From a virus, in the IMG/VR virus record IMGVR_UViG_3300036850_000051, positions 1-47,191 of that record: DNA of 47,191 bases; one strand, written 5' to 3'. Within the stretch, counting starts at the first letter, position 1; the number at the start of each line of letters is the position of its first letter. The notes beneath the pieces are model-generated. The model was not told where the DNA came from, did not search any database, and worked only from the letters and a program-made list of their open reading frames with translations. Of the stretch, positions 2,642-36,905 are shown piece by piece. Both the position numbers and the translations under genes were made by a program.

Positions 2642-2661
2642 GTTGCCCGCTCCTATTCTAG

Positions 2662-8549: not shown

Positions 8550-9563
8550 TCAGTGTGTCTTCGTCGTCTTGTTGTGGCGGACGCCCGGCCACAGGTTCAG
8601 CCGGCCCTGCAGCGACCGCGCGTACTCGTTCAGCTTCGTCTGGTTGACCGTCAGGACGTCCCAGGGGATACCGTGCTTGCCGCCGATGACCGCCGCGATG
8701 AACGCCGCCTCGTCGAGAACCTCGCCACTGTGATAGTCGCGATCGACCGCGCCGGTCGCCTTCTGGATGTTCGGCTTGACCGTCTCGACCTGCACGTCGA
8801 GCGGCAGCTCCCGTTTCGCCGCGGCCTGCGTCCGGATGGCAACCGCGTCGCGCTTCGCTTGGATAGCCGCCTGGATTTTCGGCGTGTTCAGGAGCCGCGA
8901 GCCGGCCTGATCAGCGTTGCGATACAGCGCGCCGTGCGCTGCGCGCCTGGCGTCATTGAGCGCAACAAAGTAATCGACGAAGAGCTGCTCGCGCTCGCTC
9001 AGCCCGGCCATCGACGCCTCGCGGTCGAGCGCCGCCTTTTCCATCTCCGCCTGCTCTCGCTCCGCCTGCTCGCGGGCCTTGGCCTCCGCCTCGCGCCGCA
9101 GCCGCTCCTGCTCCGCGGCGACCCGCCGGCGTTCGGCCTCGACGTACCCGTTATGAAGCCGCTGCGCGATGCCGGCGGCCTCCTCGAGCGCCGACGTCGG
9201 CCGACCGCGCGCGCCGGTCAGCCGCTTATGGAAGCCGTTGACGACCTGGCAGATCGTCCAGTGCGACTCGACTTCCTTCCGATCGCCGTTAGCCTTCTGA
9301 ATGAACGACTGAATCGCTGTGTCTTCGGCCGCGGTTGTCGGCGCCGCGAGCTGCCGCGCCTGCTCGAGCGTCGCGATCGCGGCCTTCTCGAGCGCCTGCG
9401 CGGTCGTAAAGAACCCGGCCAGGTTGCGCAGGAACTCGCGGATCGCCGGGACGACCTTCGCGACGAATTGCTCATCCTCGCTCGCGCCGAACATCTCGGC
9501 GACCGTCTCGCTGTCGAGCACCGGCTGCAGCGCGCGCAAGGATGCCGTGGGTCGTTTCACCAT
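8550..9563 (-). CDS. Coiled-coil early protein with an embedded TerS-like helix-turn-helix
   Basis: This 337-residue protein has a helical N-terminus, a long charged coiled coil (about 140-185, AERRRVAAEQERLRREAEAK), then LSEREQLFVDYFVALNDARR...LLNTPKIQAAIQAKR (about 188-238). That segment strongly resembles the N-terminal DNA-binding domain of small terminases, including the one at 46294-46863. The C-terminal part (IPWDVLTVNQTKLNEYARSL...PGVR) matches the ending seen in coiled-coil proteins that accompany phage single-strand annealing recombinases. A good Shine-Dalgarno sequence precedes the ATG. Probable role: recombination partner with DNA binding; the function is inferred. Confidence 0.75.
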   Translation of the reverse strand: MVKRPTASLRALQPVLDSETVAEMFGASEDEQFVAKVVPAIREFLRNLAGFFTTAQALEKAAIATLEQARQLAAPTTAAEDTAIQSFIQKANGDRKEVESHWTICQVVNGFHKRLTGARGRPTSALEEAAGIAQRLHNGYVEAERRRVAAEQERLRREAEAKAREQAEREQAEMEKAALDREASMAGLSEREQLFVDYFVALNDARRAAHGALYRNADQAGSRLLNTPKIQAAIQAKRDAVAIRTQAAAKRELPLDVQVETVKPNIQKATGAVDRDYHSGEVLDEAAFIAAVIGGKHGIPWDVLTVNQTKLNEYARSLQGRLNLWPGVRHNKTTKTH

Positions 9564-9595
9564 CTAGTGTCTCCTCTCTGATGTGCTGCTTCGTG

Positions 9596-9796
9596 TCATG
9601 AGCCGTTTGGCCCTTCCGCAATGCGCGCGAGCTGTGTCCGCAGCGTCGCGACGTGGTTCAGCGCCGATCGTAGATACGCCTGCAGCGCGGGGTCGTACTG
9701 GCGCACCGTTACGGCCTGCGCGTCGATCAGCCGACTCTCGATCGCCGCCGCGTCGCGCTCGAGGAGCGCGAGCTGCTCGTCGGTTATGTGCTTCAT
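9596..9796 (-). CDS. Unknown small helical protein, 66 aa
   Basis: AAGGAG sits five bases before the ATG at 9796, which is preferred to the GTG at 9802. The product is almost entirely helical (ITDEQLALLERDAAAIESRL and LQAYLRSALNHVATLRTQLA), probably a short coiled coil. No family is recognised. Confidence 0.68.
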   Translation of the reverse strand: MKHITDEQLALLERDAAAIESRLIDAQAVTVRQYDPALQAYLRSALNHVATLRTQLARIAEGPNGS

Positions 9797-17344: not shown

Positions 17345-18397
17345 TCATCCGATCTTCTGGAGTTCGAGCATAGTGTCGGCCATCACCTGCGTGGAGTTCG
17401 CCGTTTCGGACGCGTGCTTGAACTCCAAGTTTCCCGAGACCGTGACGACGACCATGCCTTCAACGATCGCCAGCATGTCGGCGTTGATCGTGTCCACGCC
17501 GGCGGACGCGGTCGTCGCCGTGTTCTTCGCGCGTTCCGACTTTCCTTCGACCAATTGCCCGACGTTCACTGCGGAGACCTGATCGCCCACGCCTGTCGCT
17601 GCCGCTCCGCCGGTCGAGACCATCCACCACGACAACACGAACGCGCCGGCCGTCCCGGTGTGATTGACCGCGAACTTAACGCCCGTCGTCGTGACACTGG
17701 ACTGATACCTCACAGTGTAGCGGAAACGCCACGTGCCGGCCCCGACGCCCGTCGTCGTCATGACAGTGGCGAGCGTCGTCGTCGCGTTCGCCGGCGCGTT
17801 CGCCGACAGCTTCTGCCAGGTGATATCCGCGCCGGCGGCGCCACTCGAGCCGTTGATGCGCGTCAGACCCGCGCCGCTGCCGGCACCCCCCGCCGGACCC
17901 GGCGGCCCAGGAATGAGGTACGGGAACTCCGGCTCCTCCGCGTCGAGTCCCGGAGGCCCAGGTATCCCCGCGGGTCCGGCTGGACCGGCCGCTCCGGCGG
18001 CCCCAGCGGGTCCAGGAGCGCCGGGGAACCCCTCCGGGCCGGCTTCCCCTTCCGGGCCGTCCAAACCCGGCGGGCCGGTCAATCCTGCCGGCCCTGGCGT
18101 GCCTGTAGGGCCGATCGGGCCCGCCGGACCCTGCGGGCCCAGGTCCCCGGGGAAGCCGTCCTCCCCGTCGAGCCCTGGCGGCCCAGGGGTCGTGCTGGCG
18201 GCTCCCTGCGGCCCGGCGGCGCCCGCCGCGCCAGCCGGACCGGGCGGACCAGGCTCGCCAGGCTCGCCGTCGATCCCGTCCACGCCAGGCAGCCCGATCC
18301 CGCCCTGCGGACCAACCGGCTGCGGCGCGCCGAGCCCGTCCTGCCGGCGGCCCGGTTGCTCCTGGCGATTGACGCGGGTCGCTTTGTCGCGCGCCAT
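17345..18397 (-). CDS. Collagen-like tail fibre protein, 350 aa
   Basis: Residues about 25-175 are Gly-X-Y repeats, many of the GPP/GPA type (for example [20 protein letters not shown]), predicting a rod-like collagen triple helix. Two short breaks occur (ASTTPG, and [12 protein letters not shown]). The C-terminal ~160 residues (from [20 protein letters not shown]) form a beta-rich domain of the kind that trimerises or binds at a fibre tip. Bacteria lack prolyl hydroxylase, so stability would come from charge and proline. Likely a host-contact fibre or a surface decoration. The ATG lies immediately before the stop of the giant gene. Confidence 0.9.
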
Positions 18398-21300
18398 CTA
18401 TCGCTCGCGCGGCGGACCGGCGACGACCGCAGTCGGTCTCGACGTCCGGCCCTCCGCGATCGCCGCGACGCCGGTCGTCGTCCGCTCGACTTGCGTCGCC
18501 GGGTAGTGGAAGATGACGCCGGCGACCGAGTTCAAGGCACGCCAGAAGGCCTCGTCGAGTTCGCCCTGCTGGATCTGCTGCCCGAGTCGCGAGAGCGCCG
18601 CAAACGCCCGCGCGCCGGCGGGCCCTTCGTACCCGTAGTAGCCCTGCAGGGCGCCCGAGACTTCACGCAGGCCGAGCATCGTCCCGGCGATATAGGAAAG
18701 CTGCTCGAGGATCAGACGCTTTGCGAACTCGTCTTCGTCGTCCTTCCTCCGCGGCCGGAGCGACTCGCGCAGGAGCAACCCCAGCGTCGCCGGCACGATG
18801 AAGAGCATCAGGTAGTCGGAAGCCAGCCGGCCGACTTCGGCCGGGTTTTTGATCCGCGTGCGCCGGCGCGATTCGACGGCTTGGTTGTACACGACGTTGA
18901 AGTAGCTGTAGAAATTCGTCCACAGCCGCATCATCGGCCCGCCGCGTTGCACTTGCGCGAGGTCCTTGATTTGGCCGCCACCCTGCGAGTCGAGCACCGC
19001 CTGGTCGGCGAGCGCGACGGCGCGATCCTCCAGCTCGCCACCGGCCATCGCCTTCTCATACGCGCCGAGCCAGGTCGGGACGTCGGCGATCCGCTGCATC
19101 TGTTGAATCATCCAGAAGTACGAGTCGGTGATGCCCTGCTTTGTGACCGTATCGAACGTCGTCTTGCGGAGCGCCTGTTCGACCCAGCCGGTGAACCGCC
19201 CGGTCTCGACGCCGACCTGATTCCGGATTTCGTTGATCTCGCGCTGCTGCGTGCGTCCGCGGGCGCGCATGAACGCGCTCTTCTCCGTGATCCAGTGGAC
19301 GGTCTCGACCATCGTGAACGGATTGCGGAGCCACCGCGCGAGGCCCTTCGCGACCCACGTCGGGCCGATGCGCACCATCGAGTTCGACAGCCCGATCGGC
19401 TGCAGGAAGGCGACGGCGAGGTTCCAGCCGAGCCCGGCGATCGTCGCACCCATGCGCACGTGATTGATCGCGCGCTCGAACCCATTGACCGCCGGCACGT
19501 CGCCGAAGGCCACGTCGCGGATGCTGCCGCGGATTTGCTTGTAGACCAGATCGCCCTGCGTCTCGAGGATCGCCTGCTGTACGTCGCTGTGCGCCAGTAC
19601 CCGCCCGACGTCGATCAGCGTCTCGTGATGGGTGAGGTCGTGGATGACCTGCGCGACGTGCTCGAACATCACCCCGAAGTCGAGCCGGACGGGCAGCTTC
19701 ACGCGCGCGATGCGTTCCTTCGTGTGGCCGCGCCGCGTCGTCGCCTGCGTATAGGCGGCCTGGCGCGCGAGGTTTGCCGCTTCGAGATCGAGCGCCGCGA
19801 TCGCTCGCGCCGAGAGCCGGTCGTCGTACTTGAGCGGGAAGTAGCCGCCTTTGATGGTGCCGGCCGACGCGGCGATCGGTGTGGCCTCGACCTTCTCCGG
19901 GGCGACGCCGTACACGCGCTCCTGCTTGGCCTTGATGTCCGGCCAATACGAGTCGAGGAAGTCGAAGACGCCCTGCACGAAATCGAGGTCCGCCGCCGTC
20001 AGCGTGTCGAGGATCGCCTGCACCTGTTGGTCGCTCCAGCCTTCGGCCCGCCGCACGCGATCACGGTTGCCGTCGTTCCCCCAATTGAGCGCGACCATGA
20101 GGCGCTCCATGCGCGACAGCGATCGCCCCACGGCCGGAATAGCTATTCGGGTATATAGCGCCTGTTTTTGTTTCCCAGGGAAGGCGCGCTCGACGAGCTG
20201 CGCAAAGCGGCGCGTCGCGTCCGCGTTCAGCTCCGCCTCCCGCGCGCCGGCCTCGTTGAGCGGGCGCATAATCGCCTCCCAGGCCGGCCCGCCATCGACG
20301 AACCCATCCAGCTCCCGGAGCATCGACGCGAGCTTGCGATGGCCGGCGAAGAAGTCGGAGACGGCGCGGCGGCGCTCGTCAGACGGCCGCCGGTCGCGCG
20401 CGGCGGCCCGCGGCGCGCGGCGCGCGTGCTCCCGGATGGAGTCGGCGATCCCGCCGGCGACCTGGTCCAGCTCGCGCTGTTCGGCCCGCCGCAAGAGGCG
20501 ACTCTTCAAGCGCGCCAGATGCACGATCTGCGCGAGGCCATCGGTGACGCCGATCAGCTCCTCGACGGTCAGCTCCGCGTAGTTTGTACGCCGCGTCTCC
20601 TCGAGCAGCTCCTCCGGTAGATCCACCGGCAGGCCTTCGCCCTCGAGCGCAGCGACGAACTTGCGGAGCGACGCGCGGCGGTCGAGCACCTTCTGGCTGA
20701 CCGGCGCGAACTCGTACCGATCGAGGATGCCATCGACCTGGTCGAGATACGCCTCGCCGGCGAGCCCCAGCCGCGCGCGGGCTGGCGGCTTGCCCAGGTC
20801 CTTCGCGCGGCGCACGCGCTGATCGACGTCATCGACCGTACGCGCCGCCTCACGGTAGAGCGCCAGGTTCAGCAGCTCTTCTTGTTTCTTCACGATGGCG
20901 CGATCGAAGTCCTGGCGCGCCGCCGCTTCAATTGCCTGCTGCGCCGCCCGCCGCGAGGCCGACCAAAAGACTTGCGGTCGCAGATCGCGGACCTTCGTGC
21001 GCGCGACGCGCGCCCGCGCCGCCTCGCGCAGCACCGCGGCCGGCGGAATGCCCGCGCGGATGACGGCCGGACCGCCGCGGCCCTTCCGCTCGAGCGCGCG
21101 CGTTTCGGCCTCCGCCGCGGCCGTCTCGGCGCGCGCGGCTTCCACGGCGGCCCGACCTTCCTCACGCGCCGCGCGGACGAATGGTCGCACCTGGCGCCAC
21201 AGCCGCCCGAGCGCGCGCAGCTCTGCGCGGATGACCAGCTCGCGATCTTCGTTCGACAGCGCGGTCTGCGCCTTTTCCTGAAGCGTGCCGTCGAGCAAGA

Positions 21301-24300
21301 GCGAACCGTGCTCTGCGAGCATCCGGCGTTCCGTCTCCGCCTGGATCGCCGCCTTCATCGCGGGCGCCTGCTCGATCGCGGCGAGCAGCTCGTCGCCGCT
21401 CGAGAACCCGAAGGCCGCGGCGACCGTGTCCGGGTCGAGCCCATCATTCCGCCGATAGATGTAGGGTTTCGGCAATCGCTTCAGCCGGCCTTCACCGTAG
21501 CGTTCGACGAGCATCCGGCGCGACAGCTTCATCGGCTCCGCCTCGAGGATGCCCTCGACGAGCGGGCTGCCGTCCGGTTGCGTGCCGCGTTGCATCGCCG
21601 CGAGCGCGCGATAGACCGGCTGCTGCTGGATCTCCTGGGTGACTTCGGTCTCGATCGCCGCGCGGCTCTCCTTCCACTGCGCCGTCTGCTCGCGCTGCAC
21701 TTCGGCCAGAATCCGGCGATCGACCTGTTCGCGCGCCGATCGCGACGCCTCCGCAATCTTCGCGCGGTACAGGTCGAACTCGGCCGCCGACATGCCCGCG
21801 GACTCCGCGGTCGTGAACATCGCTTCGACACGGCCCGCAGCTTCCGCCTCGAGGATCGCCTGGTCGCTCGCCAGCATGCGATCGAACACCTTGCGAACCT
21901 CGTCGGTGAGCTGCACGTTCAAGCCGCGCAGCGTCCGGTAGATGCCGAGCAGCCAAGCGCGGAAACGCGCGAAGGCTTCGCGTAGCTCGAGCGACGGCGC
22001 CTTGCCTTCCATCAGGTAGGCCTCGAACCCGCGCGCGAATTGTTCATGCTGCTCAAGCGTGACGTCGTCGCGCGATGCGACGCCCATCCACTTCAGCAGC
22101 GCGTTGTAGTCGGCGAGCAGGGCCTTCTGCGGCGCCGTGACCTGCTCCGGCGGGAGCGCGATCAGTTTGTCGGCCAGATCGCCGAAGACTTCAAGGAAGA
22201 AGTGCGCGCCCTCATGGAGAAACGTAGACAGATCCGCACGCTCGAGCAGGTTGATCGTCATCTGCCGATTCGGGCCCCAGCGAATCGAGCCGCGCTTGTC
22301 GCCCTGGAAGAGCACATCGCGCCCCTCCGCGGCGAGCGCCGTCCTGAGCGCGTTGAGCGTCGCGTCGCGGCTCTCCGGGACGGCCGGGTCGTATTCGGCG
22401 ACGCGCACCCCGGCCTGCGCGAGAATCGCCCGCGTCTCCTCGTCGGCGGTCGTCGGGATCACGGCGCCGGCGAACTCGTCGATGCCCACCGCGCGCTGCG
22501 GCTTCGACTCGAAGTACGGCACGGGCGCCTCGAGGAACGCCTTGCCGGCTTCGACCCCCTGCTGAACAACGGCGGACGGCACGTTGACGAATCCCTCGCG
22601 CACGAGCGCGGCGCGCAGGTTCTTTGCCGTCTGCCCCTTGCCCGCCCACTTGGCGAGCGCGCGCATGGAGGCGTCGAGCGCGTGCCACGTATCGAGCTGG
22701 CCGCGCCAGTCGGTCAGCGTCGAGTACTCGAGGACGGCGTCGCGCCAGGCCTCGAGCAGTTTCTTCGCGTGCTCGCGGGCCTCGTCGATCTCCTGCTCCG
22801 GCCGGATCTGATACGCGGCGTTGCGCATCCATTCGATATCCGTGAAGCGCGTCGCCGCGTACGCCCGCGCCGCGCCTTCGCCGAAGGTGAGCGTCTTCTC
22901 GACCGCCTTCACCCGGCGCCCGCCGGTCATGTGCTCGACGATATTGGCGAGCGTATACGGGACCTTCCGGCGATTCACCGTGAGCTGCGGCGGCGGATGG
23001 ATGCGCAGGACCTGGTCGTCGATCCACGCCTGGAACGCCGCTTCCTTGCCCCGGAGCGCCTCCTCGAGCGCCTCGCGCGTCTCGGTGAAGCTGACGTCCT
23101 TCCGGCCGATCGCTTGGATGCTCCGCTCGAGCCGCAGCGTCCAGCCGAAGGGCGGGAGTCCGTCGTCCTCGATCCAGTTCTCGACGCCGCGCCGGCGGAT
23201 GTGATCTGCCAGATCGGCATCGGTCTCTTCGACCGATGCGGCATGCTCAGCGATCGCGGCCCGGATCGCGTCGGCGAGCTTCGTGCGGTACGCGGTATCG
23301 GCATGGTCGTGCCGGGCCAGATGCTCGATCCCACCCGTCGCCTCGAGGAACGCCTGGAAGGCCGGCTGCGCGACGAACGGGACCTCCATGTTCGCGTCGC
23401 GCAGGATCGGCTCGAGCGTGATGCCCTGCTCCTCGAGGAAGAGCGCCATCGCTGCCGGCGAGCGCCGCAGGAGGCGAATCGACTCGGCCGGATCGGGTCG
23501 ATTGATGGCGCGGTCCCACAACTGATCGACGAGGCCGGCCTCGTCAAACTTCTGCGCGAGCCGGCGGAACCGATTGACGAGCGCCTGCGCGTCTTTCGTT
23601 TTCGCCTTCCCGTACTCCGGTTTGGGAAACGTCGCCGAGTAGATGTCCGCGTCGAAGACCGGCTGGCGCGCCGGGTCCCCGAGCGCGCTCGTGCCGATGA
23701 GCGTGACGTCGCCGTAGCCTTTGAGCGCCGGCGTCCCTTCCGGCAGGACCGCGATCGACGGCACGGCGATCCCGCCCATCCGTGCGGCGAACTTCAGATT
23801 GTCCGCCGAGAGCTGATGGATCGCGGAGAGTCGCGGCGCACCCGGCTGGTCGTACTGGACGATCTCGACCAGCGAGTCGTCGAAGACGACGAAGTTATAC
23901 GATCCCTCCGCCGCGCCGCCGCGCGAGAACGCATCCAGATAGCGCAAGCCGGCGACGCCCTGCTCGAGCAGGAGCTTCGACGCCATCTCTTGCGCCTTGC
24001 CCCAGGACGGCGGATAGTACACGACCCCGCCGCCGAACTCGGTGCGGTGCCGCTCGAGCGCGAGCTGCTGCAGGTCCCGATAGACCGTCTCGCCGGTCCG
24101 GTGCGGCGTCGTCTCGAGGTCGGCCCAGCCGGTGATGCTGCCGCCCCAGCGCGCCCACCAGGTCCGGAAGCCCTGATCGTCGCCGTTCTTTGCCAGCAGG
24201 TAGCCCTCGCGGAAGGTCTCCCTGGTGCCGATGTCTTCCTGCGCCGCCTCGAGCACGTGCGGTTCATTGAACAGCTCGAGCGCCTCCTCGAGCGTCGGAT

Positions 24301-27300
24301 ACTGCAAATCGGTGATCTGGATGCCGAGCGTCGTCAGCGCGCGCTTCACCTTCTCCGGCTGCTCGCTGAGCGGTTTGTCCCAATCGAGGAAGTCTTCGTT
24401 GCCGGGGATCTCGACGGTATAGGTGCGGCCGGGCCGCTCCGCCGGGATGACCTCGAGCTTGTCGCCGAAGAGATCGAGCGCCCGGAGCGCGGCGCGCCAG
24501 GTGTCCATGTCGTACTGATCGCGCGCCAGATCGCCGCTAAAGGTCTCGCCCTTCGCGTGCGTCTGCTCGAGATTGGCGATCGACTTGGTCAGATCCTCGC
24601 GGATGCGCGCCAGGCCTTCCTTCCCTGGCTTGACCCAATGCGTGCGCGCATCAACCTCGAGCAATCCCCGCTGCAGGTCCCGGTCCTGCGGCGTCGTCGT
24701 CGGCAATCCCTGCGCGTCCGTCGCGACGAAGTACAGTCCGATGTCCCGCTCGAAGAGATACACGCCATCGTAGGTAAGCCGCTTCGGGTGCTGCGGCCCG
24801 GCCAGCTTCGAGCGATACCAGTCGGCGACGCTGCGCTGCGAGGCGAAGTAGAGGCCCCAACCGTAGGCCTGCGCACCTTCGCCGCTCCCGATCGCGTTGA
24901 GCGTGAAGCGATCGAACCGATGCGGCGATCCGTGGAAGGCCGGCTGAAACAGTGTCGTCTGCTTGCCTTTGACCTTGGCGGCCTCCGGCGTGAGCGCGAA
25001 CGGCGCCTCGAACTCGGGCGTCGGCACTTCCGCTTCGCGCACCGCGCCCACTTCGCCGGGCAGCCGTGCCTGCACTTCGCCAGTCTCGAGCACGTCGGCC
25101 GCCGGCGTCGGCTCCGGCAGCTCGAGCAAGTCATCGAAAAGCGACTGCCCGAACTCCTCGATCTCGCCCTCTGTGGGTTCGACGGCCGGCGCTTCGGCCG
25201 CCGGCTCCGTCCACCACAGTTCCCCCGGGCGGACGTTCAGGAAGGCGTTCAGCACATCCATCGCCGCCGGCGACGCCGGCCCGGGCACGGCGAGCCCCTG
25301 GTTCTCGTAGTGGCCTTTGATGACCGCGTCCTCGAGGTCGGCCAGGAGCAGGTTCAGATCGGTGTACTTCGTCCACCGACCGGACGGGTCGGCCTCGAGC
25401 GACTCGCGAATCGAGTCGAGCGATCGACCGCCCTGGCCTTTGCCCAGGATGACGCCCGGCGCACCCTTGATGCCGGCGCGCAGCCGCGGCATGAACTTGC
25501 CGGCGCGTCGGCCGCGGGTGATGACGCCCTGGCCGGCCTGCAGCGACTCGAGCAGCCAGGCGACTTCGCCGGAGTAGCCGCCCATGCCCTTCGTCTCAGC
25601 GTCCAGGCCGATGCCGCCGGCTTTGGACACGGCGACGAGCAGCTCGCGCCAGCTCTGATCGTTTGCGAAGGATTCGAGGTCGCCGGCGATCTCTTGCGCG
25701 TGCGCGAGGCGCTCGAGGAAGCGCGCGGCTAGGACGTCGTCGTCGCCGGTGAAGCCGTTGCGGCGGGCGTCGTCGAGGAGCTGGTCGAAGTACTCGCGGG
25801 TTTCCGCGGGAACGAGCTGACGTTCGCCGCCTCGAGGACGCGCGATCGCGCCTGCTGGAGCGACAGCCCCGACGCCAACAGGCGCCAGAGGTTCCGCAAC
25901 ATCACGGCGTAGCTCGCCCCCTGGAGCAACGGCGGGTCCAGCTTCTTGGACTTTGCCGCCCCGGTCTTCGAGGATGCGGAAGCCGGTTGGTCCTTGGACG
26001 CCATAGGTCTCTCCCTGCCGCGGCTGATAGTCTACTGCTTCCGGTCCGACGAGTATGCGGCGCCGCCCCGTCCGGTCGAACACGACGAACTGCTCGCCGC
26101 GCGCCTGCATGCCTTGCTGCCGACGCTGCGCCTCGAGCGAGGCCGCCGATTCTAGGCTGCCGCCGATCTCGATTGCGCCTGGTTCGACGGCCTCGAGCGT
26201 CGCCGTGCCGGCGGAGGCCGCCAGGTCAGCGAAGCCGGGGATCTGCGCCAGGTCCTCGAGTCCAGGCTGGACAGCAGCCGGAGCGGGGATCGCCCCGGCT
26301 GCCGTAAGCGCCGGCTCTCGGACTGCACCCGCCGGCGGTGGTCCTTCCGCGAGCGATGGGCGCTCGACCGTCAGGCCGTACTCCGCGTAGAGCGCCGCCG
26401 GGTCGAGGCCGGCGCGCGCGGCGAGGCTGCCGATCGACGACTCGAAGAGCGCCGCGTAGGTCTCGGCCGTCTCGCGAGGCACGCCGGCGCCTTCGAGCTG
26501 CGCGAGGACCTGGTCTCGCACTTCCGCGCTGCGGCTCACGCCAGGCGCCGCCGCCTCCGTCATCGCGGCCGTGAGCTGCTCCTGAAACGCCTTGCCTTCG
26601 CGCGCGTTCATCTCGTCGGGCCCGAGCCGAAGTTCCTGAGCGAAAAAGGCGTGATGCTCCGTGCCGGCGAGCTTCACGGCGTAGCGCGCGGTCGGGATCT
26701 GCAGATCCTCGCCGGTGCGGATCGCCGTCTCGTACGCGTCGGGATCGCCGGTCAGCTCCGAGGCGACGTCGCGCGGGTCCAGCCCCTTGTCCTGCCAGTA
26801 CTGCGCGAACGTCTCGACCGGCGCGTACACGGTCGCGACCGGGCCGTCTTTCGTCGCCTGCTCGAGAAACTGCTGCGCCGCCGCCGGCATCCGCTGGATC
26901 GTTTGCGATTGACTGACGCCCTCGCCGAGCGCGACGAAGAAGGCCTCCGCCTGTTGCGCGCGTTGCGCCCGGCGCGCGTTCGCTGCCGCGGAGAGCGTCG
27001 GCCCCGGCGCGGCGACGAAGACGAAGCCCTGCGCCGCGGCGATCCCTTCCTGGACCAGATCGTCGAGGACGTCGGACGGCGTGCGGAGCTTGATGTCCTG
27101 GCCGGACGCGACCTTCCCCAGCTCGCCCGACATGATCGTGACGGCGCGTTGTGCGACTTCGACCGCGGTCTCGGCCGTCAGGACGCCAGCGTATTCCTTC
27201 ATCGCCGACGCCAGTGCCGCCCGCACGGTCGGATTGCGGAGCGCCTCGCGGATCGCGCCGCGCGCGGCGACGCCCTTCAGCTTGTCGAGGCCAGGGATCG

Positions 27301-28225
27301 ATCGGGCGAGGATGCCGAGCCCGACGACTTCCAGACCGGCATTAATGGCGCCCGCGGCAAACGCCGCGGCCTTCGCGACGGTCGGGTCGAGCGGCTTCCC
27401 CAGCTCGTCTTTGAAATCGAGGTACTCGTCATACGCGAGCCCAGCTTCCAGCTCGAATCCGAACTTGGCGCCGCCGATCGCTGCACCGACGCCCGCCCCG
27501 AATTTCGCGCCGGCGCCCGCGCCAGGCAGCGCGCCCGCGCCGGCGGTCGCCAGGCCGCCGCCGACGCCCCCGATGACGGCGCCGGTGGCCGCGCCGATCG
27601 CGGCCGGTGCCGCGGCGCTCTTGAAGCCGAAGAGCACGTTCGCGAGGAGCTGCGCGCCGCCTGTCACCGAGCTGCGGAACCAGCTATCCGCGGCACCGAG
27701 GCGACCGCCGTATTCCGCGTGAAACTTCTCGGCGTTGAGCTGGTCGCGTTCCGCTTGCGTGAGGTCGCGATAGAGCGACTGCGTTCGCAGGCCCGCGGCG
27801 CGCATCTGATGGACCGACTGCGCGAAGGCGCGCTGTGGCGCCGTGACGATCCACTCGAGCAGCCCGAGCTGCTCCATGTCGTCCTTGGCGAGCGCCGCAT
27901 TGTGCGGGTCGGCCGTCCACTCAGCGAGCGCCGGCGTTTCCTTCTGCATCGCGGCGTACGGCGTGGTATCGACCTTGACCCGCTTCGACAGATCGTCGAA
28001 GTTCCGCTCGACGACTTCTGGCGCGAGGCCCGTCGCCATCGAGAGCTTCCGGACGTCGGCCGCGCGATCGGGCGTCGTCGTCGCGGCTTCGATCTGCGCG
28101 CGGCGCATCGCCCGCGTGCGCGCGTTGTCGAGGTCGTCGAGCGTCTCGAGGAAGGGATTCGGCGGGGCCGGCGCCTGCTGCTCGTCGAGCGCGTCGAGCG
28201 CCTCGTCGAAAACGTTGAAGGCCAC
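18398..28225 (-). CDS. Giant internal virion / polyvalent ejection protein, 3275 aa (gp16-like)
   Basis: This 9.8 kb frame starts at a GTG directly after the previous stop. It occupies the T7 gp16 place, after gp14- and gp15-like genes. Visible regions: an amphipathic N-terminus; a Gly/Ala-rich hydrophobic stretch (about 190-255); an ADP-ribosyltransferase-like polyvalent domain (about 1096-1460) with [32 protein letters not shown] and the closing [16 protein letters not shown]; a linked polyvalent segment with [19 protein letters not shown] (about 1476-1550); a zincin-like HExxH (HEGAH, 2004-2008); long coiled-coil regions (2100-2620); and a conserved C-terminal domain (2790-2900) with a hydrophobic helix near 3138-3153. 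It is probably ejected with DNA, forming a channel and delivering enzymes. Enzyme activities are inferred. Confidence 0.88.
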
Positions 28226-29983
28226 TTAGCGGCGACTCCTGACGAGTGTCTCGAGGTAGAGGTCGAGCACGGCCGCATCAGACACCGGTCGATTCCGCGC
28301 GCGGAGCGCCTGTTCGATTTGCTCGCGCGTCGCCGTCGGGATGTCCGCCGCGGTGAGATTAAGCAGGCGCTTCTCCGTATTCAGGAACGGCTTGCCGCCG
28401 GGGAAGATGTTCCACCAGGAGCCGGGCACGGTCACGTTCTGCGCGAGCAGCGAGTCGATCTCCGACTGGATGTCGGTGTTCGTCGCTTTCTTCCCTCCGG
28501 CCTGCAGCAATTCGACGCGGCGATCGACCATGCGCCGAAGCTGCGCGATGGCTTTCCCCTGCGGCGTGTCCGGCTTCGCGTTCGGGTCGATCCCGTGGAG
28601 CGCGAGGGTGTCATCGACGAGCTGGACCTTCGTGCGAAACGGCGCCAGGTCCTTCTCGGTGGCGTTCCGATCGGCGTTTTTGATCGAGAGCTGCAGCCCG
28701 GCGAGCTGCTTGAACTCGACGTCGTCGAGCTTGTGCCGATAGTTCAGGAGGTTCTGCGAGGTGAAAATCTCCGGCGTGTCGGCCGCCTGCTGCATCAGCG
28801 CGTAGTAGGTCGGCAGGTCGGTCTGGATTGGCGTGCCGGCCGCCTTCTGCCGCGCGTACGAGAGCATGGCCGATCGCGTCGCCCCGCTGTAGCTCGCCCA
28901 CTGGACCGGCTGGATTGCCGTCACGTCGCCCGTGCGGTCGATGACGTCGTAGCCTTGCCGCATCGAGGCTTCCGCCGCCTCGCGCTCTTCGCGCTCCGAG
29001 ACGATGGCGTTGTGCTCGATCCGCTGCTCGACCAGGTCGCGGAGCCGGGCATCGTCGATCTGTCGCGCCTTCTCGCGCTGCTGGGTGAGCGTCCCGCCGG
29101 CGCGGATGATTTCGTCCGCGGCTTTCTGCGACTCGCTGCGCGCTGTGCCCTCGTCGAGCGCCTTCATGACGTTGTCGAGCTGTGTGCCCTCGATTTGGCC
29201 CTTCGTCGCCTCGAAGTACGCGGACGCCGCCTTGTCGTTCTCTTTGGCGAGGAGCTGACCGATGACGCCGACGTGAGTCTGTGAGGTCACGGCGCGGACC
29301 TGGGCCTCGATCATTTCCGGGCCCAGCCCGAGCGTCGGGCCGTTGGTGCGGATCGCCGTGACGGCCTTTTCCAGCTCGACTCGGACCATGCGCGGGTCGA
29401 GTGCATTCTGCATCGCCGCCTGGACGCTGTTCTCGACGTGCGACTTCAGCTCGCCGGCGCGAAACTCCTGCATCTCGCCGAAGACATGCCGGCGGACCTG
29501 CAGATCGATGCCCTGCCACTCCTGCGATCGCATCCGTTGAAACGCGGCCTTCTGATCGTCGTTGCCGAGCCCGGCCTCGAGATCGCCCGCGATCTTGTCG
29601 AACTCGTCGCGGATCTGCTCCGGCAGCGGCATCGCGTTCTCGCCCCTGATCGTCAAGGCGCCGCCATTCGGATCGTAGAGCCGCTGATTCTTCCAATCGG
29701 AGAGCGCGTTCGAGGCTTTCAGCAGCGCGGTCTGGTTCGCCTTGTCGCGCTCTTCTGCCTGGACGCGCGCGTAGAGCGAGACGCCCAGGCGGGCAACCTG
29801 CTCGCCGAATCCCGCGCGCGCCTCGAGCGTCTGCGCCTTGCCCGCTTCGCGCGTGGCCTCGAGGCGCCCGCGGGCCAGCTCCGCCGCGCCCCCTTCGGAC
29901 TCAAACGTCGCTGCGGCGCGCCGGCGCACGCCAGGCAGCGCCGTGGGTGAGACCTGCCGCTCGAGCCGCCGGACAGTGGGCAT
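28226..29983 (-). CDS. Internal virion protein, T7 gp15-like, 585 aa
   Basis: A long, mostly helical protein (coiled segments about 30-110, 190-250, 290-350) with two mixed regions and no enzyme motif. Its length, helical content and position between the gp14-like and giant gp16-like genes match the gp15 core protein of T7-type ejectosomes, which forms the periplasmic tube. The ATG lies just after the previous stop. Assignment rests on order and composition more than on a motif. Confidence 0.72.
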   Translation of the reverse strand: MPTVRRLERQVSPTALPGVRRRAAATFESEGGAAELARGRLEATREAGKAQTLEARAGFGEQVARLGVSLYARVQAEERDKANQTALLKASNALSDWKNQRLYDPNGGALTIRGENAMPLPEQIRDEFDKIAGDLEAGLGNDDQKAAFQRMRSQEWQGIDLQVRRHVFGEMQEFRAGELKSHVENSVQAAMQNALDPRMVRVELEKAVTAIRTNGPTLGLGPEMIEAQVRAVTSQTHVGVIGQLLAKENDKAASAYFEATKGQIEGTQLDNVMKALDEGTARSESQKAADEIIRAGGTLTQQREKARQIDDARLRDLVEQRIEHNAIVSEREEREAAEASMRQGYDVIDRTGDVTAIQPVQWASYSGATRSAMLSYARQKAAGTPIQTDLPTYYALMQQAADTPEIFTSQNLLNYRHKLDDVEFKQLAGLQLSIKNADRNATEKDLAPFRTKVQLVDDTLALHGIDPNAKPDTPQGKAIAQLRRMVDRRVELLQAGGKKATNTDIQSEIDSLLAQNVTVPGSWWNIFPGGKPFLNTEKRLLNLTAADIPTATREQIEQALRARNRPVSDAAVLDLYLETLVRSRR

Positions 29984-30195: not shown

Positions 30196-30834
30196 CTACC
30201 CTCCGCCGCCACGGCTGAAGCCGTAGCGCGCCATCACGAGCTGCGAGCCCGTCGAGAGGATCGAACCGGCCGCGCCCCAATTCGCCGAACTGCGCGCCGC
30301 CTTGCCCTGCTCGAAGCCGGCCTCGCGTGCCAGGCGACCGGATTCCGCGGCGAACTCCCCTTCCTGGCGTGCGATCCGCGCGCGCTGCCGGATGTCTTCC
30401 GCCTCGACGCGATAGCCCCAGGCCTCACGCGCCGCGTTCGTCTTGACCGTGAGTGCATCCAGCTCGCCCTGAAAGGCCGTGTCGGCCTGAACGTCCACCG
30501 CCGAGCCGTACCCGACGTCCACGTTCCCAGCGGCGATGCCGGCGCGTTGCTCGCCGACGAGCACCTTGACACGCTGCCGGAACCGGTTGGCGTCCAGCTC
30601 GCCGCGCGCTAGGGCGTCCTTCGCCTGCAGGTCGGCCACCGCCGCGTTGAACTCCGCGAGCGCCGCCTGTGACTCCGCCGCGCGCTGCGCGGCCAGGCCG
30701 GCGCGCTCCTCGCCCTCGCCCTGCCGCTGGAAGGCGCGCTGCTGCGCACGGCCGGCGCGGATCTGGTTGACCGCCGAGAACGCCGTGCCGGCGCCGGCGA
30801 GCGTGAGCGCGAGAATCGAGCTGAAGCCGGCCAT
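30196..30834 (-). CDS. Internal virion core protein, T7 gp14 family, 212 aa
   Basis: From the ATG at 30834 the sequence has a hydrophobic N-terminal helix (SILALTLAGAGTAFSAVNQI), a long helix of Ala/Gln/Arg (AQQRAFQRQ...DALARGELDANRFRQRV), and the family-typical GNVDVGYGSAVDVQADTAFQ...ELDALTVKTNAAREAWGYRV. This strongly matches the gp14-type virion core protein that inserts in the outer membrane during DNA ejection. It precedes gp15- and gp16-like genes in the expected order. Confidence 0.88.
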   Translation of the reverse strand: MAGFSSILALTLAGAGTAFSAVNQIRAGRAQQRAFQRQGEGEERAGLAAQRAAESQAALAEFNAAVADLQAKDALARGELDANRFRQRVKVLVGEQRAGIAAGNVDVGYGSAVDVQADTAFQGELDALTVKTNAAREAWGYRVEAEDIRQRARIARQEGEFAAESGRLAREAGFEQGKAARSSANWGAAGSILSTGSQLVMARYGFSRGGGG

Positions 30835-30838
30835 GCTC

Positions 30839-31192
30839 TTACGTCTTCTCCGCCTTGTCCCCGTCGTAGAGCTTCTCTGCCGCATCGGGCGCGGTCTCGG
30901 ACTCGGATCTCACGCTCAGATCCGTGATTTGGAGCGAGACCGACCGGCGTTCGCCCTCGCCGGTTTTGTTGCTCGAGACGCTCGTCACTTCCGCGCGCGC
31001 GTAGACGATCACCGACTTGCCGACCTTCGGCAGCTCGAGGTCCAGCTTGTCGAGCGAATCTTCGTCGAGCGTGAGCGCCAGGCCATAGGGGTAGATCGGG
31101 CCGTCCTTCGTCCCTTCGGCCAGGGAGGCGAACCTGTCCTCCCTGGCCTTTGGATCGATCTTCATGCTGACCATCTTTGTCGTGTGCGGCAC
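30839..31192 (-). CDS. Capsid staple protein, 117 aa
   Basis: I start it at a GTG (31192) directly behind the nozzle gene's stop because GGAGGT lies five bases upstream. The core IYPYGLALTLDEDSLDKLDL, then PKVGKSVIVYARAEVTSVSS and RSVSLQITDLSV matches the small capsid staple family that links capsid hexamers. The N-terminus is basic, and the C-terminal tail is acidic and probably flexible. Expected in the virion at the capsid surface. Confidence 0.82.
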   Translation of the reverse strand: MPHTTKMVSMKIDPKAREDRFASLAEGTKDGPIYPYGLALTLDEDSLDKLDLELPKVGKSVIVYARAEVTSVSSNKTGEGERRSVSLQITDLSVRSESETAPDAAEKLYDGDKAEKT

Positions 31193-33410: not shown

Positions 33411-36400
33411 CTAATTGCGTCCCGCGATCCAGTCGGCGTCCCCGTCCTTCGCCTGCTGCCCTTCGTTGGCCGCCGGCGCCTCCGCGTTCCGGAGCGCCGC
33501 GCGATACATCTCGAGACAGAACTCCTGCTTCCTCGAGTCGCGGGAGAGCGGCTGCGCGAGCGACGCCGCGATCTTCCATTGGAGTGCCGCCCGGAACAGC
33601 GGATCGCCGAAGAACGTCGGGCAAGTAATCCGGTCGGTGTACTCGAGCACGAGCGTGCCGCCGGTCGGGATAGGCTCGTCGGTGAAGATGAGCGGCCCCG
33701 TCGTATCGGAGCCGAGCCGGAACTTGATCGGGTTCGGATCGTGGGCGCGCCGCTGATCGGCCTGGCCGACAATGCGGCGCGCGAACATCATCTTCGACGG
33801 CGCGCGGTAGCTGTACTGCCAATCCTTGTTGACCGGGACCGTCGCCGTCCCGCCGACGAGCACGAGATTCGCGTAGGCCGTCGCCCACGGCCACGGGAAA
33901 TCACGGAGCACCGTGTTCACGTCCTGGAGGATGACGTCGCGTGCCTGCACGGCTTCCTCCGACGTCTCCGTCACCAGGTTCGCGATTTGCTTCGAGATTC
34001 CCAGGTGCTTCAGCGCCCGGTTGACGACCTTGCGCGTGTACACCTCGCAGACCTGGCCGCCGACCTCGCCCCAAATCATCGTGGACGTGTTCGACAAGAC
34101 CGTCGTGTTCTCGAGGTCCGGTTCGCCGGTCAGCGGAACGACCGGCGTGGGAACGGTCCCCGGCTCCGGCGGGTCGTCAGGCCAGGGGCCATCGACAGGC
34201 GAGGTCGGCTCGACGGGTACGTACTCCCCATTGCAGCCCCAGCCGTTATTGCATTCCGTCGTGCCGGCGAAGAGCGCGAAGTATGTGTAAACGACGCCAT
34301 TCGTGTTCAGGCTCGAGCCGACCGAGAACTGATCGGGTCCTCCGCCCGTGATGCCGAGCGCGGTCTCGGTGCCAAGCGACTGCGAGCTGTTCGATCCGGT
34401 GTGTGAGGGATCGCGCCAGAACCCCTGCGCCGCGGCTTCGCTCGCGACCATCACGAAGAGCGGACGCTTGCCGCCGGTGGTCGGCGCGAGATTGATCGTT
34501 CGCGACGCGGAGCCGTCGCCAGTCCAGCTCCCGAAATTGACGACGGCCGGCTCGCCGGTGTCTTTGTTGCCGTCTGACCGGCGCCACAGCGAGAAGGGGA
34601 AATTCTGGCCGACGATGCTATGAAGCGCCGTTTGTGACGTGAGCTGACCGGTCCCGAACGTCAGGGCGTTGGCAATCGCGGCGACCGTATCAAACGGCGC
34701 GATCGTCGCCGCCGCCTGTCCAGGGCCCTTCAAATAGAACCGCTTCGTTGAGACGTTCGAGTACTCCTCCGCGAAGAGAAACGCGAACCCCGGCAGCATC
34801 TCGGCATTCACGATCTTGTTGACGAAGGACGCCGTTGCTGCCTTGTGATTGAAGCTGCCGTTCAGCATGTAGCGCATGCCGGGGTCGGCGACGCCGACGT
34901 ACTGATAGGTGACGCCGCTCGCATTGAGCTGCGCCGAGCTGCCGGCAATCCGCACGCGATACCGCTGCTGCTGGGAATTGTCGCCTGGCGCCGGCGAGAA
35001 GGTGAGATCCTCTTGCGCGTCGCACGTCCGCGCGTTGATGCCCTGGCCGAAAGCCTCGTGCGAGCCGATCATCGTGCTCCACCAGATCATGCCGCCGGTG
35101 TTGCCCGTGAGCGGACGCACGAAGAACCAATTGACCGGTGCGCGGAACGTGATGTCCTGGCCGGTGCCGTTGCCGACGTAGGTGCCGCCCTGCACAATGT
35201 AGGGCGCGATCGGGCCGGCGAGCGCCTCCTTCGCCCACTGCGATCGCGGGTAGGGCGCATTGTGCTGCCCGACGCTCGACGGCGTGTTGTTGCCGGTGGT
35301 GCCGTGCTCGCTCGCCCGATAGTCCTCTGGCCCGAAAAGCCCGATCAGCTCGACCTGCGCGAGCAGGCTCGAGAGGTTGACCGTCCCGGCGTCGTTCCCC
35401 TTCTCGTACCGCAGCTCAATCGGCGTGGCGTCCGGAAAGTCCGGCGAACTCCCGGACGGCGTCCCGACGGTCTGCGCCGTGTAGAGCACGCTGTTCGCCG
35501 TCTCGGCGCCGCCCCCATCGATGACCGTGGTCATCACCTCCGGGTTCGCCGCGAGCTTGAAGCCCAGCCGACCATCCGCGCCGGCGCCGGTGCGGATCGA
35601 CCGCTTCGAGACAACGATCGAGGCGACGCCAACGGAGCCCGGTTCCGCATCGACGACGACGTCGCTGTCGGCATCGACCGCGGCAAGCGATTGCGCGGTC
35701 GAGGAGACAATCGTCGCGACGCCGGACGTCGTCCCGCCGGGGTTCTGGATCAAGACGCGGAAGTCGCCGGTCCAGGAGCCGCCAGCGTGATTCGCGCTGA
35801 ACTGTTTCGGGCGCAGCAGCGCGACCTTCGATCCCTGCAGGAAGTCCTGGCCGTTGAGCTGCTCGACGCTGCTCCGGGTCGGGATCTCCGCGTTCATCCA
35901 GTCGTCGATGTCGATCTCCATGTCGTTCGTATCGGAGACCGGATTGCCGACGAGCGATCGCGTGTGCCTGGACTGCCCGGTAGGCATCGCGACGTCGGCC
36001 ACTTTCGTGCCGCCGGCGTAGACGCGGAATTTCGGCACGTCGTACTCGATGAGCAGGTCGAGCTTGACCCAGGCGTTATGCGACGGCAGACCGGTCCATT
36101 CGACGAGCACGTTAGCGATCGTCGTCACGAGCGCGAAGGTTCCCGCCGTGCGAGAGAAGACGGCGAGCTGCCCGGTCGGTGTGACGCCCAGCGCCATGCC
36201 GGTCGTCGCCGTCGGGAAGCCCTCGCACATCCAGAAGTAAATCGTTTTGGCCGGGTCCGGCTTACGCAGCCGGACGTAGAGGCGCTCCCAGCTTTTCGGA
36301 CTCTCGAGCGCCGCGTCGTATTTGTTCAGGGTGACGGACTCGGTCTGGTTCGACGCGCCGCGGAGCGCGAGGCCCATGCCACCGGTGTGCCGCGCCGCGT

Positions 36401-36905
36401 CTCGGCTAACGTTCTGGCCCGGTGCGCCGCTCGCGCCGCTCGCGCCCAGCCCGGGCGTCTCGAAGCCCTCGAGCCATCGGCGTTTGGGGATCTCTGCGCG
36501 GTTATCAACGGGAACCGGTACGCCGCCAACGGTCGGGCCATCGCCGGCGCCAGTGTCGCCATCGGCCGCGAGCACGAACGAGCCCATCCAGTAGTACTTG
36601 ACGGTCGTGCCCCCGATGCCCAGGAAGCCGCCGGTCGTGCGCGAGAACGTCTTGACGTCGAGCGGATAGGGCCCGCCTTCCGTGCCGTACCCGGACCAGG
36701 GCGTCCAGGTAAACGGCGCCGATTCGGCATCCGGCTCTGTGTAGCCCCGGAACGGCGCTTGGAGCTGATCGGCCGCAAAGAGTGGCGCGAGGTTGGCGCC
36801 GCCGGCCGCGGCATAGAAGGCGGTCTCCGAGTCCACCTTCGCCTTGTCCGTCAGATGGACGTAGAAGCTGAGGTAGTGAACCTTGTTGCTGTCGAAGATC
36901 GCCAT
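33411..36905 (-). CDS. Fused lectin-like surface protein and tail adaptor (tail tubular A-like), 1164 aa
   Basis: Residues 1-890 are beta-rich and fibre-like: an N-terminal collar domain (about 1-150), a concanavalin/LamG-like part (about 170-340) and a further beta region with FSLWRRSDGNKDTGEPAVVN. A Pro-rich linker (about 896-930) leads to residues 955-1164 (VVNRALKHLGISKQIANLVT, then VLRDFPWPWATAYANLVLV, then WQYSYRAPSKMMFARRIVG), which clearly match the gp11/tail tubular A adaptor that joins portal and nozzle. Adaptors are normally free ~200-residue proteins, so this fusion is unusual. An internal GTG at 34043 with AGGT upstream could also yield the adaptor alone (210 aa). Confidence 0.85.
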   Translation of the reverse strand: MAIFDSNKVHYLSFYVHLTDKAKVDSETAFYAAAGGANLAPLFAADQLQAPFRGYTEPDAESAPFTWTPWSGYGTEGGPYPLDVKTFSRTTGGFLGIGGTTVKYYWMGSFVLAADGDTGAGDGPTVGGVPVPVDNRAEIPKRRWLEGFETPGLGASGASGAPGQNVSRDAARHTGGMGLALRGASNQTESVTLNKYDAALESPKSWERLYVRLRKPDPAKTIYFWMCEGFPTATTGMALGVTPTGQLAVFSRTAGTFALVTTIANVLVEWTGLPSHNAWVKLDLLIEYDVPKFRVYAGGTKVADVAMPTGQSRHTRSLVGNPVSDTNDMEIDIDDWMNAEIPTRSSVEQLNGQDFLQGSKVALLRPKQFSANHAGGSWTGDFRVLIQNPGGTTSGVATIVSSTAQSLAAVDADSDVVVDAEPGSVGVASIVVSKRSIRTGAGADGRLGFKLAANPEVMTTVIDGGGAETANSVLYTAQTVGTPSGSSPDFPDATPIELRYEKGNDAGTVNLSSLLAQVELIGLFGPEDYRASEHGTTGNNTPSSVGQHNAPYPRSQWAKEALAGPIAPYIVQGGTYVGNGTGQDITFRAPVNWFFVRPLTGNTGGMIWWSTMIGSHEAFGQGINARTCDAQEDLTFSPAPGDNSQQQRYRVRIAGSSAQLNASGVTYQYVGVADPGMRYMLNGSFNHKAATASFVNKIVNAEMLPGFAFLFAEEYSNVSTKRFYLKGPGQAAATIAPFDTVAAIANALTFGTGQLTSQTALHSIVGQNFPFSLWRRSDGNKDTGEPAVVNFGSWTGDGSASRTINLAPTTGGKRPLFVMVASEAAAQGFWRDPSHTGSNSSQSLGTETALGITGGGPDQFSVGSSLNTNGVVYTYFALFAGTTECNNGWGCNGEYVPVEPTSPVDGPWPDDPPEPGTVPTPVVPLTGEPDLENTTVLSNTSTMIWGEVGGQVCEVYTRKVVNRALKHLGISKQIANLVTETSEEAVQARDVILQDVNTVLRDFPWPWATAYANLVLVGGTATVPVNKDWQYSYRAPSKMMFARRIVGQADQRRAHDPNPIKFRLGSDTTGPLIFTDEPIPTGGTLVLEYTDRITCPTFFGDPLFRAALQWKIAASLAQPLSRDSRKQEFCLEMYRAALRNAEAPAANEGQQAKDGDADWIAGRN
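34041..34043 (-). promoter_or_regulatory. Possible internal translation start for the adaptor domain
   Basis: An in-frame GTG (codon 955 of the 1164-residue protein) is preceded by AGGT seven bases upstream. Starting here would give a 210-residue protein of normal adaptor length. The Shine-Dalgarno match is short, so this is a hypothesis. Confidence 0.3.

What the first reader, a model, noticed from the sequence alone, without database searches (positions are those of the whole stretch)
18398..28225. 3275-residue ejected protein with ADP-ribosyltransferase-like and metalloprotease-like regions
The gp16-position protein is about 2.5 times the length of T7 gp16. It has an ART-type polyvalent domain (about 1096-1460: [10 protein letters not shown]-like [23 protein letters not shown]) and an HExxH zincin-like site at 2004-2008 in a context ([20 protein letters not shown]) seen in polyvalent proteins. 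If ejected with DNA, the cell would receive both activities before any phage gene is expressed. Not a new class, but the combination in a podovirus ejectosome deserves testing.
Basis: partly seen in the sequence, partly recalled or inferred. Interest (0 to 1): 0.8.

Follow-up and report, generated by a model that had tools for sequence, protein, structure and literature searches.

The report
Phage injected protein with swappable effectors
A short-tailed phage encodes one giant protein, probably injected with its DNA, built like a cargo container: a constant frame with a built-in protease holds exchangeable enzyme modules, here a predicted ADP-ribosyltransferase and a predicted nuclease-like domain, and a short glutamine-ending tag that may be a cutting site precedes each module.

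Summary
The 3275-aa minus-strand ORF sits in the gp14/gp15/gp16 position and has both motifs at the stated residues. An AlphaFold model of 1088-1462 has the ART fold; its best PDB match is a domain of the cyanophage A4 pre-ejectosome. The zincin residues (H2004, E2005, H2008, E2061) are invariant in relatives. The kind is known: a polyvalent protein (Iyer 2017). The zincin is not an optional second weapon but part of a constant frame (LPD22/N-terminal block plus zincin/C-terminal core) shared with BPP-1 Bbp10 and hundreds of viral contigs. Between the two blocks is a bay of 19-2040 aa whose content changes even between frames about 60% identical: ART, PBECR5, PBECR1, GGDEF, GNAT, DUF7178. New here: a Phi-x-Q motif, typically LFQ, sits just upstream of the zincin (75/86), ART (17/17) and PBECR5 (22/23) modules, against 16-28% background. 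It recurs in a held-out set (43/48). The same ART outside the family lacks it (Q at -3 in 2/48 versus 30/32). Best reading: junction or processing sites, probably for the resident zincin. Ejection, cleavage and enzyme activity are untested.

The parts
18398..28225 (-). 3275-aa gp16-position polyvalent protein (P0001)
   Evidence: phrog_9880 at 1795-3266, E=0
27827..28105 (-). LPD22 domain, residues 41-133 (constant frame)
   Evidence: Pfam PF18834 E 1.3e-15; found in 77 of 98 relatives
27476..27628 (-). glycine-rich hydrophobic stretch, residues 200-250, possible membrane-inserting region
   Evidence: sequence; weak glycine-zipper hit E 0.22; inference
26354..26995 (-). N3 block, residues 411-624 (constant frame, end of the N-terminal part)
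   Evidence: found in 82 of 98 relatives
24971..26308 (-). residues 640-1085, start of the cargo bay; block shared only with close kin
   Evidence: 10 of 98 relatives; function unknown
24944..24952 (-). junction motif 1, LFQ 1092-1094, just before the ART
23846..24943 (-). ART (ADP-ribosyltransferase-like) module, residues 1095-1460
   Evidence: AlphaFold pLDDT 88; PDB matches 9k3a_B Z 10.3, tankyrase 2 Z 8.2; alignments A2, A4
24932..24934 (-). H1098, predicted NAD-site histidine in strand 1
24848..24850 (-). Y1126, predicted NAD-site tyrosine in strand 2
23879..23896 (-). N1444 to D1449, third-motif strand of the ART
   Evidence: N1444 at the start of the strand; D1449 in 49 of 62
23846..23854 (-). 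junction motif 2, YDQ 1458-1460, between ART and PBECR5
22352..23842 (-). PBECR5 module, residues 1462-1958; invariant H1470, S1490, E1906, K1908, R1911, E1917
   Evidence: Pfam PF18814 E 3.8e-15; A3, A5; model pLDDT 88.5
22304..22312 (-). junction motif 3, LFQ 1972-1974, just before the zincin
21860..22294 (-). zincin-like metallopeptidase domain, residues 1978-2122 (constant frame)
   Evidence: A1
22202..22216 (-). HEGAH 2004-2008, zinc-binding and catalytic motif
   Evidence: invariant in A1 15/15 and A5 25/25
22043..22045 (-). E2061, predicted third zinc ligand
   Evidence: invariant in A1 and A5; in a helix after the HExxH helix in the model
18401..21859 (-). C-terminal core, residues 2123-3275 (constant frame)
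   Evidence: A1; HExxH-to-stop length median 1247, sd 89, in 107 relatives
28226..29983 (-). gp15-position internal virion protein (context)
   Evidence: phrog_10475
30196..30885 (-). gp14-like internal virion protein (context)
   Evidence: phrog_418; PF24072 E 2.8e-4

Best explanation
This is the large internal virion (ejection) protein of a BPP-1-like podovirus, built as a polyvalent protein. A constant frame, made of an N-terminal part (LPD22, hydrophobic stretch, N3) and a C-terminal part (zincin plus a core of about 1150 aa), serves packaging and ejection. Between them is a cargo bay whose modules are exchanged between phages; here it holds an HYD-type ART and a PBECR5 domain. The protein is ejected with the DNA. 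The resident zincin cuts at Phi-x-Q junctions (LFQ1094, YDQ1460, LFQ1974) and frees the modules, which then modify host targets before phage genes are expressed. Shown here: architecture, exchange of cargo, conservation of active-site residues, ART fold, enrichment of the junction motif. Inferred: ejection, zinc binding, cleavage at the motif and its timing, enzyme activity and targets.
For: Synteny with gp14/gp15/tail-tube genes, and the same gene order in BPP-1, Caulobacter SR18, Carin1 and Pseudomonas AF. HExxH to stop is nearly constant (sd 89 aa) while the bay varies 19-2040 aa (sd 495) in 107 members. Frames about 46% (N-terminal) and 58-64% (C-terminal) identical carry different cargo; L023, core 64% identical, carries GGDEF. 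Pfam tally of 54 bays: ART-PolyVal 19, PBECR5 14, DUF7178 8, GNAT 4 (Acetyltransf_7), LPD23 3, GGDEF 2, MuF_C 2, PBECR1 1. ART fold; an ART-like domain is already solved inside the cyanophage A4 pre-ejectosome, 9k3a_B residues 1418-1605, Z 10.3. Invariant H2004/E2005/H2008/E2061. Junction motif: before zincin 75/86, ART 17/17, PBECR5 22/23, background 16-28%; strict [LF][FYN]Q 45/86 before zincin against 10/747. Held-out genomes: 43/48. Same ART outside the family: Q at -3 in 2/48 against 30/32, Fisher 2.6e-17. LFQ is written with 16 different codon strings, so selection acts on the protein. Iyer 2017 (PMC5512222) proposed MPTase self-processing of polyvalent proteins.
Against: No experiment. 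Proline follows Q at two of the three junctions in this protein (Q1094-P, Q1460-P) and in many relatives; most endoproteases avoid proline there, so the cut may not be right after Q, or the motif may not be a cut site. N4 vRNAP, which also has an MPTase, is packaged uncleaved according to PMC5512222. The relatives are not independent, so Fisher values overstate the case. Within this one protein two L[FY]Q sites are not rare (0.93 expected); only position and family recurrence speak. D1449 varies in relatives (49 of 62). Foldseek E-values for the ART are weak (best 0.027).
Confidence: 0.55

Rival explanations
1. Same architecture, but Phi-x-Q is not a cleavage site. It is a linker or beta-edge element that joins modules to this frame, for example to let the chain unfold and thread through the tail. 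The zincin acts on something else.
For: Proline often follows Q. In the ART model F1093-Q1094 begin strand 1 (residues 6-13 of the model), and L1972-F1973 form a short strand or bridge in the other model.
Against: The same ART outside the family lacks the Q (2/48), so the ART fold does not need it. The same motif precedes three unrelated modules.
Confidence: 0.22
2. The junctions are real cut sites but for another protease, such as a head-maturation protease; PHROGs labels the neighbour at 39179-39973 'protease', and BPP-1 bbp18 in the same place is annotated so.
For: phrog_458 'protease' E 1.4e-25 for 39179-39973; bbp18 'protease'; T4's prohead protease cuts after a hydrophobic-x-E motif (own knowledge), which is similar in form.
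Against: The 264-aa product looks like a scaffold protein by eye and no catalytic motif was recognised. The motif tracks proteins that carry the zincin core.
Confidence: 0.1
3. One reading: ART and zincin are two co-injected attack enzymes, the zincin cutting host proteins.
For: Both active sites are conserved. Iyer 2017 leaves room for effector MPTases.
Against: The zincin is present in every family member examined, with or without recognised cargo, and is fused to the constant core. That is how a housekeeping part behaves, not an exchangeable weapon.
Confidence: 0.08
4. The domains are structural leftovers: ART and PBECR5 folds serve as packing modules of the ejectosome without enzyme activity.
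For: An ART-like fold is part of an ordered pre-ejectosome structure (9k3a). D1449 is not invariant and N1444 stands where PARPs have the catalytic Glu (alignment by eye).
Against: H1098, Y1126 and the GEG motif are kept across alignments diverged to about 30% identity (partly selected for), and modules are exchanged for quite different enzymes such as GGDEF and GNAT.
Confidence: 0.05

Closest known systems
Bordetella phage BPP-1 Bbp10 and the Rauchvirus-like family (phrog_9880)
   Same: Same position after gp14/gp15 homologues, LPD22, zincin and C-terminal core (38% identity over the core)
   Different: 2052 aa; its short bay holds a PBECR1 domain instead of ART plus PBECR5
Polyvalent proteins of phages (Iyer et al. 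2017, PMC5512222)
   Same: Many disparate domains in one chain, MPTase hub, ART of the HYD clade, PBECR, LPDs, encoded among virion genes
   Different: That paper's text does not mention Bordetella, BPP-1 or internal virion proteins and names no junction motif among the passages read
Cyanophage A4 pre-ejectosome protein (PDB 9k3a chain B; taken here as the counterpart of Anabaena phage A-4L ORF27)
   Same: An ART-like domain inside an ejectosome protein; best PDB match of our ART model (Z 10.3)
   Different: 16% identity over aligned residues; no Pfam hit; no HExxH seen in A-4L ORF27. The paper itself was not available
Burkholderia phage JC1 gp69 (DarB-like, 4515 aa; PMC9144972)
   Same: Giant polyvalent-type podovirus protein found in virions by proteomics (51 unique peptides)
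   Different: DarB-like antirestriction type; not compared by sequence here
N4 virion RNA polymerase
   Same: Giant injected podovirus protein with an MPTase in its C-terminal half (PMC5512222)
   Different: No detectable homology of the core (hhalign probability 0.1%); packaged unprocessed
T7 gp16
   Same: Genome position and presumed ejection
   Different: No homology to the core found; T7 gp16 has an SLT domain, for which P0001 shows no Pfam hit

Membership tests
Polyvalent proteins (Iyer 2017) | two or more domains of disparate predicted activity in one chain | tested here: met
   LPD22, ART, PBECR5, zincin
Polyvalent proteins (Iyer 2017) | encoded among late/virion genes | tested here: met
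   gp14/gp15/tail tube/portal neighbours
Polyvalent proteins (Iyer 2017) | delivered into the host with the DNA | not testable with these tools
   needs virion and infection proteomics
ART superfamily, Tox-ART-HYD2/ART-PolyVal clade | ART fold | tested here: met
   model pLDDT 88; 9k3a_B Z 10.3 and PARPs Z about 8 over 110-117 residues, rmsd about 3; Foldseek E only 0.027
ART superfamily, Tox-ART-HYD2/ART-PolyVal clade | H in strand 1, Y in strand 2 | tested here: met
   H1098 and Y1126 in those strands, 62/62; the set was partly chosen by these motifs
ART superfamily, Tox-ART-HYD2/ART-PolyVal clade | D in strand 5 | tested here: inconclusive
   D1449 present here, 49/62 in relatives; it lies just after the modelled strand, N1444 at its start
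ART-PolyVal (Pfam PF18760) | reaches Pfam's gathering score (a detection limit, not a biochemical feature) | tested here: not met
   16.2 bits against 31.2, though 19 of 54 relatives' bays match PF18760 at E<=0.001; filed as ART-PolyVal-like, not as a Pfam member
PBECR5 (Pfam PF18814) | reaches Pfam's gathering score | tested here: met
   56.8 bits against 25
PBECR (BECR-fold RNases) | BECR fold | tested here: inconclusive
   the best PDB matches of the model are ART-superfamily chains, 7yw4 (Tpt1) Z 7.8 and 8htf Z 6.6
PBECR (BECR-fold RNases) | conserved active-site histidine | tested here: met
   H1470 24/24, although the model puts it in a strand rather than the N-terminal helix
Zincin-like MPTases | HExxH plus a downstream Glu ligand in a later helix | tested here: met
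   H2004, E2005, H2008, E2061 invariant; helices in the model
Zincin-like MPTases | match to a solved zincin fold | tested here: inconclusive
   Spartan E 0.49 by profile; neprilysin Z 3.1 in a model of 676 residues
T7 gp16 | sequence homology | tested here: not met
   hhalign probability 2.6%, core against T7 gp16
T7 gp16 | N-terminal SLT transglycosylase | tested here: not met
   Pfam SLT found in T7 gp16, not in P0001
N4 virion RNA polymerase | homologous MPTase/C-terminal region | tested here: not met
   hhalign probability 0.1%

The most novel reading that the evidence does not exclude
These ejection proteins are self-processing polyproteins. A family-wide junction code (Phi-x-Q, best LFQ) marks the N-terminal edge of each cargo module and is read by the resident zincin. 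Modules can be swapped freely as long as they carry the tag, and other polyvalent classes use another tag ([RPM][FY]S).
Probability: 0.42. Interest if true: 0.82.

Novelty: new variant of a known kind. Interest (0 to 1): 0.62.

Why it matters
How phages deliver and release several early-acting enzymes from one injected chain has been open since polyvalent proteins were proposed in 2017 with an assumed but unlocated self-cleavage. The motif gives three exact predicted sites in this protein (fragments of about 114, 41, 57 and 145 kDa) and candidate sites in many relatives, including those of cultivable phages of Caulobacter and Cobetia, so the question becomes directly testable. It also gives a ruler for finding unknown effector modules: whatever lies between the N3 block and the LFQ before the zincin is candidate cargo.

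Tried and rejected
DNA-level relatives in GenBank phages: none. Homology of the core to T7 gp16 and to the N4 vRNAP C-terminal half: none found. Homology of the PBECR5 module to the ART by profile: none (probability 1.6%), although its model resembles ART chains. Sequence relatives of ART or PBECR5 in the PDB: none significant. Foldseek with the 676-residue PBECR5-zincin model against the PDB: nothing at E <= 0.001; against viral models: large phage proteins. The idea that the motif is a DNA recombination site was rejected: 16 codon spellings. Promoter/terminator scan: chance level. Papers: the A4 pre-ejectosome paper is not held; the BPP-1 head paper names no Bbp10; no held paper mentions PBECR5.

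Full report
WHAT IS THERE. The window is a 47,191-base IMG/VR virus record. The ORF at 18398-28225 (minus) encodes 3275 aa from GTG with a good ribosome-binding site. It follows genes for tail tube proteins, a gp14-like internal virion protein and a gp15-position protein.

DOMAINS. Pfam gives LPD22 (41-133) and PBECR5 (1466-1661), both clearly significant, and only a sub-threshold ART-PolyVal hit. The ART was therefore tested by alignment and structure. Relatives align over 1088-1462 (A2; A4, 62 sequences). The AlphaFold model has pLDDT 88. Its best PDB match is chain B of the cyanophage A4 pre-ejectosome (Z 10.3, rmsd 5.0, 153 residues), followed by tankyrase 2 and other PARPs (Z about 8, rmsd about 3, 110-117 residues), ParT (7.8) and MbcT (7.5); Foldseek's own E-value is weak (0.027). 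The A4 region probably corresponds to the C-terminal part of Anabaena phage A-4L ORF27, which has YHGT...GTYFS there. H1098 and Y1126 lie in strands 1 and 2. Iyer 2017 describes the clade as H, Y and D in strand 5; D1449 is present but varies in relatives, and N1444 sits at the start of the strand. The counts of H and N in A4 are inflated because that set was filtered for them. The zincin residues H2004, E2005, H2008 and E2061 are invariant in 15/15 (A1) and 25/25 (A5) sequences.

CONSTANT FRAME AND CARGO BAY. Relatives found through the C-terminal region alone include Bordetella phage BPP-1 (Bbp10), Caulobacter SR18, BL94, Jess A and RapA, Cobetia Carin1, and Pseudomonas, Xanthomonas and Vibrio podoviruses; those examined have a matching HExxH. 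A scan of viral contigs returned 533 relatives, a lower bound. Among 107 members with all frame blocks, the length from HExxH to the stop varies little (median 1247, sd 89), while the bay between N3 and zincin ranges from 19 to 2040 aa (sd 495). The sets fetched with zincin patterns are biased towards keeping HExxH. Three contigs with cores 58-64% identical and N-terminal parts about 46% identical show no match to the window over 1095-1965. Contig L023 (core 64%) carries a GGDEF domain there. BPP-1 carries PBECR1 and SR18 a short ART. Tallies over 54 bays are. ART plus PBECR5 in the same order is also in L185, L186/L187, L188 and L232, so the combination is uncommon but not unique.

THE JUNCTION MOTIF. 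While reading the module edges I saw LFQ just before both the ART (1092-1094) and the zincin (1972-1974), the only two L[FY]Q in this protein, and YDQ (1458-1460) before PBECR5. In 86 non-redundant members Phi-x-Q (Phi = L, F, Y, I or M) lies within 20 aa before the zincin in 75, before the ART in 17/17 and before PBECR5 in 22/23; random windows of the same proteins have it in 16-28%. The strict form [LF][FYN]Q: 45/86, 10/17 and 10/23 against 10/747. The strict motif peaks sharply: 60 in the 20 residues before the zincin, 8 or fewer in any other 20-residue bin within 240 residues. In a held-out set from bacterial genomes (under 70% identity to any earlier member) it is before the zincin in 43/48, background 119/576. 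The same ART in proteins without this frame has Q at -3 in 2/48, against 30/32 inside the family; other polyvalent proteins often show [RPM][FY]S at that place. Sixteen codon spellings of LFQ speak against a DNA-level cause. Relatedness inflates the P values, but recurrence before three unrelated modules, its absence outside the family and the held-out test are hard to explain by descent alone.

HOW IT MOST LIKELY WORKS. Packaging and ejection with gp14/gp15 follow from synteny and precedents: JC1 gp69, a 4515-aa podovirus protein, is in virions, and the A4 pre-ejectosome holds an ART-like domain. Processing by MPTases was proposed in 2017. The motif supplies candidate sites, giving fragments of 114.5, 41.3, 56.6 and 145.3 kDa. 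Against it: proline after Q at two sites, and N4 vRNAP is packaged unprocessed. Cutting by another protease remains possible; PHROGs labels the scaffold-like neighbour at 39179-39973 'protease'.

PBECR5. The module extends beyond Pfam's hit: a further region (1704-1955) co-occurs with it in all 11 other PBECR5 members, and invariant residues lie at both ends (H1470, S1490; E1906, K1908, R1911, E1917). The model's three best PDB matches are ART-superfamily chains (Tpt1 Z 7.8; a bacterial effector Z 6.6 and 6.5), the next being 4.7. PBECR5 may thus be an ART-like fold with H1470/S1490/E1917 rather than a BECR nuclease; this is a lead, not a result.

VERDICT. Observation confirmed; kind already known; interpretation corrected (the zincin is frame, the cargo is ART plus PBECR5); a testable junction code is new here.

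Noticed in passing
L066 (ORF residues 1090-1454), L097, L258 (ORF residues 1335-1906): An ART module is inserted inside the zincin, between the HExxH helix and the Glu helix, in at least two lineages.
   Followed up: partly
L155, L176, L131, L135, L216, L207 (non-family polyvalent proteins): The same ART and PBECR5 modules are preceded there by [RPMTK][FY]S instead of Phi-x-Q: possibly a second junction code tied to another protease.
   Followed up: partly
window 22352-23842: The PBECR5 model resembles ART-superfamily folds (Tpt1) more than anything else listed; Pfam's BECR label for this family may need checking.
   Followed up: partly
L011 (BPP-1) 9487-9747: The well-studied phage BPP-1 carries a PBECR1 domain at 643-729 of Bbp10, in the cargo bay before its zincin.
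   Followed up: partly
window 28226-29983: The gp15-position protein is 585 aa and has no Pfam hit, whereas BPP-1 bbp11 is annotated with a transglycosylase and Carin1 gp33 as lysozyme; the wall-degrading domain seems missing.
   Followed up: no
window 33411-36905: 1164-aa ORF with tail tube A (phrog_394) only at its C-terminus (960-1163); about 950 N-terminal residues are of unknown kind.
   Followed up: no
window 17345-18397: Collagen-repeat protein directly downstream, in tail-fibre position (Pfam Collagen, E 2e-17).
   Followed up: no
window 39179-39973: phrog_458 'protease' hit on a protein that looks like a scaffold; the label is doubtful.
   Followed up: no
L310 (Acidobacteria MAG contig): 59% identical core in a contig binned as Acidobacteria: a weak hint at the host group of the window's phage.
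   Followed up: no
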